Under the pieces are notes generated by a model. It ran no database searches. It was not told the origin of the DNA and saw only the letters and a list, made by a program, of their open reading frames with translations. Shown here one piece after another: positions 1 to 3,937 of a DNA stretch of 56,385 nt. The stretch is from Phenylobacterium sp. (lineage in GTDB: Bacteria; Pseudomonadota; Alphaproteobacteria; Caulobacterales; Caulobacteraceae). Both the position numbers and the translations under genes were made by a program. Within the stretch, counting starts at the first letter, position 1. Every line of letters begins with the position of its first letter. The stretch covers positions 1 to 56,385 of the forward strand of contig NZ_JACESE010000024.1 in assembly GCF_013911965.1 (NCBI RefSeq), read 5' to 3'.

Positions 1-283
1 CCCACAGTGACCCTCCCAGCCGCCCGCCTCACCCTCCGCCTCATCCTCGCCGCGGCCTCCTTCGCCGCCGGCGTCCTGCACCTCGCCGTCCCTGCGCCGT
101 TCCTCGGGATTACGCCGGGCTGGGTTCCGTCGCCGCGATCACGGCCTGCGGCCACGGAACCCAGCCCGGCGTAATCCCGAGGAACGGCGCAGGGACGGCG
201 AGGTGCAGGACGCCGGCGGCGAAGTAGGCCGCGGCGAGGATGAGGCGGAGGGTGAGGCGGGCGGCTTGGAGGGTCACTGTGGG
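1..283. repeat. 130-bp fold-back inverted repeat at the window edge
   Basis: Bases 1-130 are the reverse complement of 154-283 with two mismatches that I could count (near 18 and near 59), around a 23-base unique loop (131-153). The symmetry starts at the very first base, so it may extend beyond the window. The right arm plus loop form one sensible minus-strand reading frame. The left arm read on the plus strand goes out of family frame in the loop, so the left arm is the copy. This is what a fold-back assembly or read chimera at a contig end looks like. A real inverted duplication or a replicon-end hairpin is the alternative. Confidence 0.85.
128..277 (-). pseudogene. Truncated 5' end of a DoxX-like membrane protein gene
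   Basis: From a GTG at 277 the minus strand encodes about 50 residues. They contain a hydrophobic first helix (LILAAAYFAAGVLHL) followed by FLGITPGWVPWP, which resembles the N-terminus of small DoxX-type four-helix membrane proteins. The frame then runs into the fold-back arm, which adds a few meaningless residues and a TAA. What remains is the first helix and first loop; the other helices are missing. It is divergent from the SIR2 gene. The family call rests on pattern memory of a short segment, so it is tentative. If the fold-back is an assembly artefact, the real gene is probably intact. Confidence 0.5.
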
Positions 284-373: not shown

Positions 374-1795
374 ATGAGCGAGCCCAACAACGTTCCTTCC
401 CCTTACAGCCTCTTTGGCCCGTCTGAAGACGGCAAAGCGGACGACTTGCTCAAAGGGAAGAATGAGACTGAGGCGCGCATCAGGCTTCAGGCGCTGATCG
501 CTGAATGGCTGCGCATGGAGAACCTCGTTGTTCTCACTGCCGCTGGCTGCTCCGTCGGCGAGGGCTTGGGCGGCAAGACGATGGCCAACCTTGATGCAGC
601 GGTCCTCAGCACTCTCGAAAAGCACCCTGACATTCCACCAGAGGCGAAGAAGATCGTCAGCGGTCGACTGAGTGATTTATTGGTCCAAGATTCGATCGGT
701 TTCGAGGCTTGGCTCTCGTTCCTCGTGAACGCCTATCACCTTGCGACATCCACAGGATCGCCGTTCTGTGGTCTCAATTGGCAGGGCGATGCGACGCCAT
801 CAATCGACGACCTAAAGTGGCTCATTGACCATCTGGGCCGAGCAATATTTGCGGAGTGCGCACTTAGTTTGCCGCCCATTCCCGAGGGCTCGGTGACGCC
901 GGCAGGGGTTCCGCCCCATCTCGCGTTCCTCGCGAAGCTCGTCGCCCGCGACAGCAACCTCGGACGCGCGAACCTATTCACGTTGAACTACGATACCCTC
1001 TTCGAGCAGGCGCTTGAGCGCCTAGGCATTCAGTATTTCGACGGCTTCAGCGGACGGGCAGAGGCGCGGTTTGATCCGTCCGTCTATGGGCTAGACATTT
1101 ACTATCCAGGCGAGGTCGCCGAAGGCCGTGTCCGCCGGTTTGACAAGTTCTTGCACTTCTACAAGCTTCACGGCTCGATCCACTGGCGAGCCGAAGGGGA
1201 CGAGCTCCGTGCGCGACACCCTTCGCTCGCGCCGTTCGCCGACTATCGGGAGTTGGGTGTCGAGCAGAAGGCGCAGAAGCTCGATAGCCTGACGGAGAAT
1301 ACTGGTCCCATTGGCATCCTTCCGACGGCCAACAAGTTTGCTCAGACTTTGTCGATGCCGTTCGCGCATTTGCTGCGCTCGTTCCAAATACGCCTAAGCG
1401 TGCCGCAGACCTTCTTGCTCGTCCTCGGTTACGGTTTCGGCGACGAACACGTTACGCGAATAATTGAGACGGCCCTCATGAACCCCTCGCTAGTGATGTT
1501 GGTCGTTGAGCCCGATCCGAAGAGTGCGACGATCAAACGAATTCAGGGGTACAAGGAACTCGGGCGGCGCGCATTCGTGCTGACTGCCACCGAGGAGGCC
1601 TTCAAGGCGGCCAAGTTCAAGCACGCAAGCTTCGATGACTTTGCGAAGACAATTATGCCCGACGTCCAATGGTTAACGGACTTCCTACGACTGCGGAGTT
1701 TTGAAAAGCAGATCGCTTCCATCCAGGGCGATAAGGCCCCTGCGCTAGGCTTAGACGCTGCGCTCGGTGGGCCGCCGCACCAGACTGGGGGCTAA
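374..1795 (+). CDS. SIR2-like NAD-hydrolase-type protein of a SIR2-HerA defence module
   Basis: A protein of 473 residues from the ATG at 374, which has GGAG five bases upstream; a GTG two codons earlier is the alternative. After a helical extension of about 50 residues comes the Rossmann-type nucleotide motif AAGCSVGEG (near residue 56). NYD follows near 205 and KLHGS near 264, the Asn and His that form the SIR2 active site. LVLGYGFGDEHV, typical of SIR2-like defence proteins, lies further on. Known: such domains cleave NAD+ rather than act as classic deacetylases, and they pair with HerA ATPases in anti-phage systems. The next gene is a HerA ATPase whose ATG directly abuts this stop codon. 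Codon use is less GC-rich than in the core genes. The usual GAGxS glycine is replaced (AAGCS). Role in phage defence is inferred from domain pairing. Confidence 0.88.
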   Translation: MSEPNNVPSPYSLFGPSEDGKADDLLKGKNETEARIRLQALIAEWLRMENLVVLTAAGCSVGEGLGGKTMANLDAAVLSTLEKHPDIPPEAKKIVSGRLSDLLVQDSIGFEAWLSFLVNAYHLATSTGSPFCGLNWQGDATPSIDDLKWLIDHLGRAIFAECALSLPPIPEGSVTPAGVPPHLAFLAKLVARDSNLGRANLFTLNYDTLFEQALERLGIQYFDGFSGRAEARFDPSVYGLDIYYPGEVAEGRVRRFDKFLHFYKLHGSIHWRAEGDELRARHPSLAPFADYRELGVEQKAQKLDSLTENTGPIGILPTANKFAQTLSMPFAHLLRSFQIRLSVPQTFLLVLGYGFGDEHVTRIIETALMNPSLVMLVVEPDPKSATIKRIQGYKELGRRAFVLTATEEAFKAAKFKHASFDDFAKTIMPDVQWLTDFLRLRSFEKQIASIQGDKAPALGLDAALGGPPHQTGG

Positions 1796-3937
1796 ATGGA
1801 GAGCCCACGGGTCATCGGGCACATCGTCGCAGTCCAAGGATTTCGGGTCAAAGTCGAACTCCTGCCCGGGACGCACTCTGCGATGCGCGCAACGCTGGAC
1901 GGTGTCCAAGTCGCTGTCGCTATCAATGCGTATCTGACCTTTTCCCTAGGCGCGGGTCAGACGGTAATCGGCGTCATCACCGATCTCGAAGCGCGCGAGA
2001 GTTACGATCCGTCATCGGGCGACGAGCTGACCTTGGAACTCATAAAGCCACGGCGTGTAGCAAGCGTTCAGTTGCTTGGGACGATCAGCCGGGCGGGCGA
2101 AAAATGGACGTTTAGCGCCGGCATTACAATCTTGCCAACACTCGACACACCGGCCGAAATCAGCCCTCCAGATGTGTTGAAGGCAGTTTTCGAGACGCCG
2201 CCCCGTCGCAACCGCCCTGACGATTATGAGGGCGATGACGACGACTTTGACTGCGATCTGACGCTAGGTTGTCCAACGGGTCAGCCTCAGAATGTTGTAC
2301 GCGCGTCGTACAACGACATGTTCTCAAGACCACTTGCGATTGTCGGTAATACAGGTTCCGGAAAGTCTTTTTCCGTCTCGAGCCTCATCCAGAAGGCCAT
2401 GGCCGCTCTCGGTGACGAGGGGAACGAACCGCACATCTTCGTGCTCGATATCAACGGCGAGTACGGCAAGGCTTTCGGGGGCGCACAGACGCTCGAACGC
2501 AGGCCCGATCACGTCTATCTGAACGGCCAGGAATTCCCCCTTCCGATCTGGCTATTCAACGCAGCCGAAGTTTGCGCCTGGCTGAGCGCGTCAGAGCAAA
2601 CCCAGGAGCCCGTCCTGAAGGATTGGTGGGCGTTGGCGAAAGCGAAATCGACAAACAAGGCGCTCGCCGCAGACGCAAACTCGCTACGCCTCGCGCTTCA
2701 GAAGGCGAACGCCATTGTCGAAGTACTCAACACCACCGGCCGACCTAAGAAGAAGCCTGCGGTGACCGATCACCGCATCATGGAAGGGTATCTTGGTGGC
2801 CGGGAACTAGCTGGTCGACAACGACTAACAGCTGCCCTCGCTCAACATCAAGGGCAGCTCAACGCTAACCCGCCGGATTTCAACTCGCCACTCAACGAGG
2901 CCGAGATCAGGAGTGCCGCAGAAGAGCTCGCGGCGTCAATCAAGGAAGTGCTCGCAGGTGAACTGGCCGTCGCGACCGTCAGCGCAACGACAGCAGACAG
3001 CCCTCTCTATATTCCACGCTCGAAGTTTCAAGATCCCTCGCTCATCGACGCTGCAACTTCCCCGGAAGAGGCAGGCAGAATCGAAGCGCATCTCACAACA
3101 CTGAAGTTGCGCCTCCAAACGCGGCTTGATGATCCACGTTGGCGTGCTTTCCTGAATTACGAAGAGGAGGCAACCAAGGTCACCTCTCTGGAAGATTGGT
3201 TGAAACGCTTCGGATTAGGCGTACGGAAAGGGCCGCGCGTTGCCGTCCTCGATCTCTCGATGCTCAGTCACGAAGTGCTGCCGTACGCCTGCACCGTGAT
3301 CGGGCGCGTCCTCCTAGAGATACGCGAAAATTTGCCCGCGAAAGCTCGCTACAAGCACCCATGGGTCTTGGTCCTCGAAGAGGCCCACAACTACGCTAGA
3401 CCTCCGCGCAGCGACGAAGCCAAAGGCCAAACACTCTCGCGGCTCGCGTTCGAGCGGATCGCAAAGGAGGGCCGGAAGTTCGGCCTCTCGCTTATCATCG
3501 CCAGCCAGCGGCCAAGCGAGATAAGTCAGACGATCATCAGCCAGTGCGCCAACTTCGTCAGCCATCGACTCCAGAACCCCGACGACATTGAGCATTTCAG
3601 GCGCATCATCCCCATGCAGGCGCGCCGGCTCCTCGACCAGGTGACGATACTCGACAGCGGCGAAGCGATCGTCTTCGGAAGCGCGTTTCACATTCCGACC
3701 CGTGTTCAATTCACACGGCCCGAGCCTGGACCGTGGAGCACCACAGCCGCGCCGTATCATGAATGGCGGATGGAAAAGGCGGCTTTCCCGCTCGACACGG
3801 TGGTCGACGCCTGGGGAATACGTGTGCAAGCGCCGCCCCATCAGATGGATACCACAGCCGCGGCGAACGTCGGCGTAGTGCCTGGGGAAACTGACGAGCC
3901 GCCGCGCAGCAAGCTGGACGACGAAATCCCATTCTGA
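1796..3937 (+). CDS. HerA-family hexameric ATPase of the SIR2-HerA module
   Basis: A 713-residue protein. The first 100 or so residues are a beta-rich HAS-barrel-like region. The Walker A motif GNTGSGKS lies near 183-190, and the Walker B strand WVLVLEEAHNY near 522-532. IIASQRPSEI follows, and then the conserved QNPDDIEHFRRI. This is the HerA/FtsK-superfamily layout. A long alpha-helical insertion (about residues 260-450) separates the Walker motifs. Its ATG follows the SIR2 stop codon without a gap, so the two are translated together. Known: in SIR2-HerA systems the two proteins form a large complex, with NAD+ depletion or DNA-directed activity upon infection. No nuclease partner (NurA) is adjacent, which supports the defence rather than the archaeal repair role. 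No third gene is seen before maeB. Confidence 0.9.
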   Translation: MESPRVIGHIVAVQGFRVKVELLPGTHSAMRATLDGVQVAVAINAYLTFSLGAGQTVIGVITDLEARESYDPSSGDELTLELIKPRRVASVQLLGTISRAGEKWTFSAGITILPTLDTPAEISPPDVLKAVFETPPRRNRPDDYEGDDDDFDCDLTLGCPTGQPQNVVRASYNDMFSRPLAIVGNTGSGKSFSVSSLIQKAMAALGDEGNEPHIFVLDINGEYGKAFGGAQTLERRPDHVYLNGQEFPLPIWLFNAAEVCAWLSASEQTQEPVLKDWWALAKAKSTNKALAADANSLRLALQKANAIVEVLNTTGRPKKKPAVTDHRIMEGYLGGRELAGRQRLTAALAQHQGQLNANPPDFNSPLNEAEIRSAAEELAASIKEVLAGELAVATVSATTADSPLYIPRSKFQDPSLIDAATSPEEAGRIEAHLTTLKLRLQTRLDDPRWRAFLNYEEEATKVTSLEDWLKRFGLGVRKGPRVAVLDLSMLSHEVLPYACTVIGRVLLEIRENLPAKARYKHPWVLVLEEAHNYARPPRSDEAKGQTLSRLAFERIAKEGRKFGLSLIIASQRPSEISQTIISQCANFVSHRLQNPDDIEHFRRIIPMQARRLLDQVTILDSGEAIVFGSAFHIPTRVQFTRPEPGPWSTTAAPYHEWRMEKAAFPLDTVVDAWGIRVQAPPHQMDTTAAANVGVVPGETDEPPRSKLDDEIPF

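What the first reader, a model, noticed from the sequence alone, without database searches (positions are those of the whole stretch)
374..3937. Two-gene SIR2-HerA anti-phage module beside the core chromosome
A SIR2-like NAD-hydrolase-type protein and a HerA ATPase have abutting stop and start codons. This composition is a described defence system (SIR2-HerA), so it is not new as a class. Points of interest are the AAGCS variant of the SIR2 nucleotide motif, the N-terminal extension of about 50 residues, and the long helical insertion between the HerA Walker motifs. These could mark a divergent subtype.
Basis: partly seen in the sequence, partly recalled or inferred. Interest (0 to 1): 0.7.

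Follow-up and report, generated by a model that had tools for sequence, protein, structure and literature searches.

The report
Anti-phage SIR2-HerA with SSB-like tail
This is a known type of two-gene bacterial anti-virus system, but its DNA-motor protein ends in the same short docking tag that bacterial single-stranded-DNA-binding protein uses to recruit DNA repair and replication proteins, which suggests a testable way for the system to find infected DNA.

Summary
Window 374-1795 encodes a SIR2-like protein and 1796-3937 a HerA ATPase, stop and start codons abutting. Both match PADLOC SIR2 and HerA profiles over nearly their full length; predicted folds match solved SIR2-HerA chains. As a class it is known.

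The unusual feature was not noticed: HerA ends LDDEIPF, like three of the host's four SSB-family ORFs. In the 3.86 Mb genome D-[DE]-[DE]-[ILMV]-P-F-stop occurs four times: three SSB genes and this HerA. 20 of 22 HerA rows with a C-terminal extension of 10 aa or more end in an acidic-PF tip, 0 of 34 others, 0 of 55 HerA/DUF87 rows outside the subfamily. The tip is conserved, the linker is not.

Best reading: a SIR2-HerA variant whose HerA carries SSB-Ct-mimicking tails that dock it onto SSB-interacting proteins at ssDNA. Binding is untested.

The parts
374..1795 (+). SIR2-like NADase-type gene, 473 aa
   Evidence: ORF; PADLOC SIR2 PDLC04085 E 6.6e-227; AlphaFold2 model mean pLDDT 74.1, best Foldseek match SIR2 of 8sub E 2.6e-15
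539..553 (+). AAGCS variant of the SIR2 nucleotide motif (residues 56-60)
   Evidence: sequence; one of five variants among 40 rows. The window alone has two extra residues a little after it, seen by eye in the printout
986..988 (+). Asn205 of FTLNYD, presumed NADase catalytic Asn
   Evidence: invariant in the 30-row alignment; an active-site Asn (N168) is needed for defence in V. cholerae Nezha (PMC11559045, passages); the correspondence is by motif, not aligned here
1169..1171 (+). His266 of YKLHGS, presumed NADase catalytic His
   Evidence: invariant in the 30-row alignment; V. cholerae counterpart H227 by motif
1796..3937 (+). HerA-type ATPase gene, 713 aa, start codon abuts the SIR2 stop
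   Evidence: ORF; PADLOC HerA PDLC04106 E 0 over residues 1-675; solved HerA relatives
2345..2368 (+). Walker A GNTGSGKS (residues 184-191)
   Evidence: invariant in 33 rows
2657..2983 (+). Helical segment between the Walker motifs (residues 288-396), the most variable internal part of HerA
   Evidence: predicted helices 288-312, 319-333, 341-355, 368-396; poor conservation in columns 290-415 (by eye)
3368..3388 (+). Walker B region LVLEEAH (residues 525-531)
   Evidence: L527, E528, E529, A530 and H531 invariant in 33 rows
3755..3817 (+). Conserved C-terminal element YHEWRMEKAAFPLDTVVDAWG (residues 654-674)
   Evidence: aligned to the C-terminus of 8xau HerA; present in tailed and tailless rows
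3818..3913 (+). Variable, predicted disordered linker (residues 675-706)
   Evidence: block pLDDT 33-36 over 681-713; 10-14% pairwise identity in the 12 residues before the tip among 18 tailed rows; not covered by the PADLOC profile
3914..3934 (+). SSB-like C-terminal tip LDDEIPF (residues 707-713), directly followed by stop
   Evidence: identical to the last seven residues of three host SSB-family ORFs; one of only four matches to the tip pattern in the genome
4142..6430 (+). Flanking core gene (malic enzyme / phosphotransacetylase)
   Evidence: Pfam malic, Malic_M and PTA_PTB; found in 59 of 60 genomes sampled from the order

Best explanation
A horizontally acquired SIR2-HerA (Nezha-type) abortive-infection module in which HerA has an added C-terminal docking tail that imitates the SSB C-terminal tip (SSB-Ct). 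Inferred mechanism: HerA and SIR2 assemble (12 SIR2 with 6 HerA in relatives). The flexible tails, up to six per HerA ring, insert their terminal Pro-Phe-carboxylate into the SSB-Ct pockets of SSB-interacting proteins (RecO, PriA, RecG, RecJ and the like, or phage-encoded ones). This places the complex at single-stranded or replicating DNA, where HerA engages DNA and SIR2 hydrolyses NAD+. Shown here: gene pair, intact catalytic motifs, fold, the tip, its rarity in the genome, its conservation against a free linker. Inferred: binding to SSB partners, recruitment, NAD+ depletion, anti-phage activity. I did not search which SSB partners this host encodes.
For: Module: PADLOC, solved relatives by sequence and fold, SIR2 match in 49 of 52 HerA loci. 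Tail: LDDEIPF equals the end of 3 of 4 host SSB-family ORFs. Genome-wide, the tip pattern has 4 sites, 3 SSB + HerA, reversed-pattern control 0. Of 566 closed stop-to-stop ORFs of 150 aa or more in 53 sources, 17 end in PF and 16 carry the tip, all 16 lying in the HerA gene. 20 of 22 HerA rows with 10 aa or more past the core end in PF, 0 of 34 others. Last six residues 75% identical pairwise against 14% and 10% in the two blocks before; P and F are fixed by choice of rows, which leaves about 62% over the other four positions, with Asp at -5 in 18 of 18; in tip codons 398 comparisons differ only synonymously and 230 in the residue. Tailed rows lie on several deep branches of the tree. The layout matches SSB: poorly conserved disordered linker plus conserved tip anchored by the terminal Phe and its carboxylate (PMC10164576, passages). 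A 2025 review marks Sir2-HerA 'Unclear' in its table of two-component systems (PMC12198126, passages).
Against: No binding, defence or NAD+ data exist for this locus. Many members lack the tail (34 of 56 rows have under 10 aa past the core; 34 of 52 rows, two of them outgroup, carry no tip), so it is dispensable for at least some. The tip is not finely tuned to each host: the last six letters equal a host SSB in 7 of 16 hosts (counted by eye). Two tips have Asn or Tyr at -3 (L083, L171), and 2 of 22 extended rows lack PF (L045, L053). The tip pattern also ends 5 of 34 labelled genes that are neither SSB nor HerA. The HerA model has low confidence (mean pLDDT 59.8). Per the review, HerA binding by itself opens the SIR2 pocket in one relative, so activation need not involve a tail.
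Confidence: 0.5

Rival explanations
1. Bait or guard: the tail is a decoy SSB tip. Phage proteins that must dock on host SSB (or block the SSB tip) bind HerA instead, and that binding, or displacement of a host partner, is the trigger.
For: Same sequence evidence as the best explanation. Phage SSB is a trigger for AbpAB (PMC10732053, title and passages), and a phage-encoded factor stimulates Hna (PMC13381803, title and passages), so phage DNA-handling proteins are known to be sensed.
Against: No phage ligand is identified. The tip is conserved rather than diversified, as expected for binding conserved host pockets.
Confidence: 0.2
2. The tail is an assembly element like the HerA C-terminal hook of DUF4297-HerA, docking bulky residues into the neighbouring HerA subunit.
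For: A hook on a long loop, with four bulky residues in hydrophobic pockets of the neighbouring subunit, is described for DUF4297-HerA (PMC11291478, passages).
Against: The stretch that aligns to the 8xau C-terminus is residues 654-674, before the tail and present in tailless rows. A review says no such hook was seen in Sir2-HerA (PMC12198126, passages). The linker has 0-2 aromatics in 24 residues.
Confidence: 0.13
3. The acidic tail is an autoinhibitory DNA mimic that occupies the HerA DNA channel or SIR2 until displaced by DNA, without any SSB partner.
For: The tail is acidic (2-9 D/E in the 24 residues before the tip). [quoted passage not shown]
Against: Charge alone does not require a terminal Pro-Phe, found in 20 of 22 extended rows, with the stop directly after it.
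Confidence: 0.1
4. Ordinary SIR2-HerA; the tail is a neutral leftover.
For: A tailless group of 24 rows exists, and the PADLOC profile stops before the tail.
Against: The tip is conserved against a free linker, with many synonymous changes, across rows down to about 50% identity.
Confidence: 0.07

Closest known systems
SIR2-HerA (Nezha) anti-phage system; solved entries 8j4u, 8su9/8sub/8suw/8uae, 8wld/8wod/8wof/8woc, 8yhx
   Different: Low identity (about 16-28% over aligned parts); HerA carries an SSB-like tail, not seen in the 55 HerA/DUF87 rows outside the subfamily. The C-termini of the solved chains themselves were not read here beyond the alignments
PADLOC subfamily models PDLC04085 / PDLC04106
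   Same: Near full-length matches; all 33 HerA rows of A1 match PDLC04106
   Different: The HerA profile match ends at window residue 675, before the tail
DUF4297-HerA
   Same: HerA fold, with sequence and fold relatives 8xau, 8ziq, 9c1m
   Different: Partner is a nuclease, not SIR2; a C-terminal hook is described there (PMC11291478, passages)
Bacterial SSB C-terminal tail (linker plus SSB-Ct)
   Same: Same tip sequence as host SSBs, at the absolute C-terminus after a variable, predicted disordered linker
   Different: No SSB domain found in HerA; the tip sits on a motor ATPase

Membership tests
SIR2-HerA anti-phage system | Adjacent SIR2-like and HerA genes in one operon | tested here: met
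   Abutting codons; SIR2 match in 49 of 52 related HerA loci
SIR2-HerA anti-phage system | Both proteins match SIR2/HerA defence profiles | tested here: met
   PDLC04085 E 6.6e-227, PDLC04106 E 0
SIR2-HerA anti-phage system | NADase catalytic Asn and His in SIR2 | tested here: met
   N205 and H266 invariant in 30 rows
SIR2-HerA anti-phage system | HerA Walker A and B intact | tested here: met
   K190, S191, E528, E529 invariant in 33 rows
SIR2-HerA anti-phage system | Folds of the solved complexes | tested here: met
SIR2-HerA anti-phage system | 12:6 assembly, NAD+ depletion and phage protection | not testable with these tools
   Needs experiments
NCBIfam equivalogs NF042942 / NF042944 / NF042943 (anti-phage SIR2, HerA) | Score above the curated cut-off | tested here: not met
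   144.6 of 500; 218.6 of 850; 200.6 of 800 bits; so not filed under these equivalogs
SSB protein family | SSB domain (PF00436) | tested here: not met
   No SSB match among the Pfam families listed for HerA at E up to 1; it shares only the tip
SSB-Ct type docking peptide | Acidic residues, hydrophobic residue, Pro-Phe at the absolute C-terminus after a disordered linker | tested here: met
SSB-Ct type docking peptide | Binds SSB-interacting proteins through the terminal Phe | not testable with these tools
   No complex prediction or binding assay available here

The most novel reading that the evidence does not exclude
A lineage of SIR2-HerA systems disguises its motor protein as SSB: HerA tails compete with SSB for the cell's SSB-interacting proteins (or phage proteins that target them), so that disturbance of the SSB interaction network during phage replication is itself the infection signal that starts NAD+ depletion.
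Probability: 0.25. Interest if true: 0.85.

Novelty: new variant of a known kind. Interest (0 to 1): 0.6.

Why it matters
How SIR2-HerA is switched on by infection appears open (marked 'Unclear' in a 2025 review table, PMC12198126, passages). A conserved SSB-type docking tip on the HerA motor gives a direct, cheap hypothesis for targeting or sensing: remove one terminal Phe and measure defence and binding. It would also add an immune motor ATPase to the users of the SSB-Ct code. A single ZorA2 protein in one relative's genome ends in the same kind of tip, which raises the question of whether other defence systems borrow it.

Tried and rejected
AAGCS as a mark of divergence: rejected, 9 of 40 rows have it, window included. 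N-terminal region as special: rejected, shared by the subfamily. Viral or phage carriage: the viral-contig scan with A1 gave 33 pattern matches, none a relative; the phages collection gave 2 records, both partial and under 35% identity, one annotated terminase; plasmids gave 2 records at E <= 1e-60, both aligned only to residue 674. Host-tuned tip: not supported, 7 of 16 identical in the last six letters (by eye; the L052 and L069 tips taken). Insertion boundary from an empty site: not obtained; only the maeB promoter side aligns (from window 4033 in L148), and no DoxX match stood out upstream of maeB in L148-L158. ZorA2 tip as a general feature: 0 of 3 plasmid ZorA2 relatives fetched (L253-L255) have it. 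Papers on an SSB-like tip in HerA or a defence protein: searches (0 papers; 1; 11; 14; 1; 4; 160, of which 40 were listed, many on sugary drinks) showed none that I recognised as describing it; nor did the SIR2-HerA listings 15 and 19. This covers only an open-licence library. The main SIR2-HerA papers (Shen 2023, Tang 2023, Zhen 2024) were not read, only seen as citations. Papers seen as passages: PMC12700824, PMC11559045, PMC13381803, PMC10732053, PMC11981726, PMC12198126, PMC10164576, PMC11291478; PMC10018359 as a listing abstract only.

Dropped rows: one search kept 40 SIR2 rows above 420 aa and 45 HerA rows above 600 aa, window included, out of 52 loci plus the window. L051 was dropped. 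One search has 52 rows (49 different) and lacks L029, L031, L033, L052 and L069; one search has 56 rows. One search used 18 of 20 tailed rows (L073 and L055 left out as near copies). In one search the DUF87 control kept 17 of 30 loci; redid it on all 30 plus 29 of the 30 loci (the window's own, L167, left out). Of those 59 rows, 4 belong to the subfamily (L161 runs off its contig; L166 no tail; L171 DDDYPF, missed by the script's pattern; L172, same gene as L086, no tail). The other 55 rows are 53 different genes (L117/L179 and L118/L186 are the same); none ends in PF, one (L165) ends SDDDIF. In one search, 44 sites were found, 30 fetched and labelled, 14 not. In one search SSBs were sought in 30 hosts and found in 29; one search read one or two per host, three for the own genome.
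Full report

SUBFAMILY. A scan of genome contigs with the HerA protein returned 52 loci at 50-71% identity, many of them Alphaproteobacteria by title but also other groups; 49 of 52 have a SIR2 match by tblastn. The motif AAGCS is one of five variants (GSGTS 19, AAGCS 9, GAGTS 6, GAGCS 3, AAGTS 3 of 40 rows, window included). In the printed alignment of that call the window alone has two extra residues a little after it (seen by eye). All 33 HerA rows tested match PDLC04106. The NCBIfam equivalog cut-offs are not reached, so the subfamily is apart from those named anti-phage equivalogs. In a sample of the class it is rare: 5 of 385 genomes, the window's own included, at E <= 1e-60.

THE UNEXPECTED FEATURE. 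HerA ends ...PPRSKLDDEIPF. The E. [quoted passage not shown] loss of the terminal Phe eliminates the interactions and Pro-to-Ser weakens them (PMC10164576, passages; the abstract of PMC10018359 in the listing says at least 17 partners). The host has four SSB-family ORFs; three end LDDEIPF, the same seven residues as HerA, the fourth does not. A search of the whole genome for DNA encoding D-[DE]-[DE]-[ILMV]-P-F-stop found four sites, three SSB genes and this HerA; the reversed pattern found none. In 20 further genomes that hold relatives (15 with tailed HerA, 5 tailless), 44 sites were found against 0 for the reversed pattern. Of these 30 were fetched; with the four own sites 34 were labelled: 20 SSB, 9 HerA, 5 other. 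Of the five others one is a DUF736 protein (L208), two more (L215, L222) look alike to my eye, one is a ZorA2 (L194/L251), one is unknown (L218).

RECURRENCE AND SELECTION. Among 566 closed stop-to-stop ORFs of at least 150 aa in the 52 loci and the window, 17 end in PF, 16 carry the tip, and all 16 lie in the HerA gene. Grouping 56 HerA rows by whether they run 10 aa or more past the conserved core, without looking at the tip, 20 of 22 extended rows end in PF with acidic residues before it and 0 of 34 others do. Outside the subfamily 0 of 55 HerA/DUF87 rows end in PF; one, L165, ends SDDDIF, a near miss. Among 18 tailed rows the last six residues are 75% identical pairwise, the two preceding six-residue blocks 14% and 10%; since the rows were chosen by their PF end, the fair figure for the other four positions is about 62%, with Asp at -5 in 18 of 18. 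In tip codons 398 comparisons differ only synonymously and 230 change the residue, against 59 and 827 in the linker block at -18 to -13. On a tree of 52 rows (18 tailed) the tail needs seven changes and is found on several deep branches, while one group of 24 rows has none. I read this as an old tail lost several times; the root is by midpoint, the tool warned of long branches, and some tailless rows (L045, L048, L053, L059) have odd or possibly truncated ends. In L053 (extension without PF) the host SSB that was read also lacks the PF end, one case only. The tail is predicted disordered (block pLDDT 33-36 over 681-713). The C-terminal hook described for DUF4297-HerA (PMC11291478, passages) would, by the alignment to 8xau, lie at residues before the tail; a review says no such hook was seen in Sir2-HerA (PMC12198126, passages).

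HOW IT PROBABLY WORKS. Shown: the gene pair, intact motifs, fold, tip, its rarity in the genome, and its conservation. From the literature on relatives: 12 SIR2 with 6 HerA, NAD+ hydrolysis, need for HerA (PMC11559045, passages), and HerA binding opening the SIR2 pocket in one system (as told in PMC12198126). Inferred: up to six SSB-like tails dock the complex on SSB-interacting proteins at single-stranded or replicating DNA, bringing HerA to its DNA and licensing SIR2. The bait version, in which phage proteins that seek SSB touch HerA and trigger it, is not excluded. The same review marks Sir2-HerA 'Unclear' in its table; AbpAB is triggered by phage SSB (PMC10732053, title and passages). My literature searches (15, 19, 28, 29, 36, 37, 44, 83, 84, the last with 40 of 160 papers listed) did not show a report of an SSB-like tip on HerA, within an open-licence library only.

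AGAINST. No functional data; the tail is absent from many members; the tip is not host-tuned in detail (7 of 16 identical in the last six letters, by eye); 2 of 22 extended rows lack PF; 5 of 34 labelled tip genes are neither SSB nor HerA; the HerA model is weak.

CONTEXT. In the seven same-genus loci with the closest maeB (89-92% identity), of which only 1.5 kb upstream was seen, the gene just upstream of maeB differs: AbiJ_NTD3/Abi_C (L225), Shedu SduA (L228), a SIR2_2 match below cut-off and unknown to PADLOC (L227), CcdAB and YefM (L148), YefM (L226), an AraC-type regulator (L224), unassigned (L223). That suggests a turnover site for defence-type modules beside maeB in this close group; more distant same-genus loci show other genes there, which I did not classify.

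VERDICT. Known system class, new variant: an SSB-mimicking tail on HerA. Interest 0.6.

Noticed in passing
window 1-136 and 148-283: The contig starts with a 136-base inverted repeat (98% complementary, 11 bases between the arms) that includes a DoxX-like gene fragment (name recalled, not searched); a paralogue about 88-90% alike lies on contig C13. Perhaps an assembly-end hairpin.
   Followed up: partly
L223-L228 and L148, upstream of maeB: The gene directly upstream of maeB varies between the seven closest same-genus loci and is often of defence or toxin-antitoxin type (Shedu SduA, AbiJ/Abi_C, CcdAB, YefM, weak SIR2_2), suggesting a defence hotspot.
   Followed up: partly
L251:5498-6982: A ZorA2 protein followed by ZorB2 and ZorE2 genes ends LSDDDIPF, also an SSB-like tip; 0 of 3 plasmid ZorA2 relatives fetched have it.
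   Followed up: partly
L208, L222, L215: DUF736-type proteins (only L208 confirmed by Pfam) end in SSB-like tips (DDEIPF, DDEVPF, DDDIPF), hinting that this uncharacterised family is tied to ssDNA metabolism.
   Followed up: partly
L165: A more distant HerA (E 1.6e-57 to the window's) ends SDDDIF, like an SSB tip without the Pro.
   Followed up: no
L052 and L069: HerA in these relatives is not one open frame in the assembly, yet its C-terminal ORF ends in an SSB-like tip.
   Followed up: no
L053: Omnitrophota MAG: HerA has an extension but ends GVDDL, and the host SSB that was read lacks the PF tip (ends DEEENVA).
   Followed up: no
L080:1847-2209 (-): A fourth SSB-family ORF beside the third SSB gene in the window's genome lacks the tip.
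   Followed up: no
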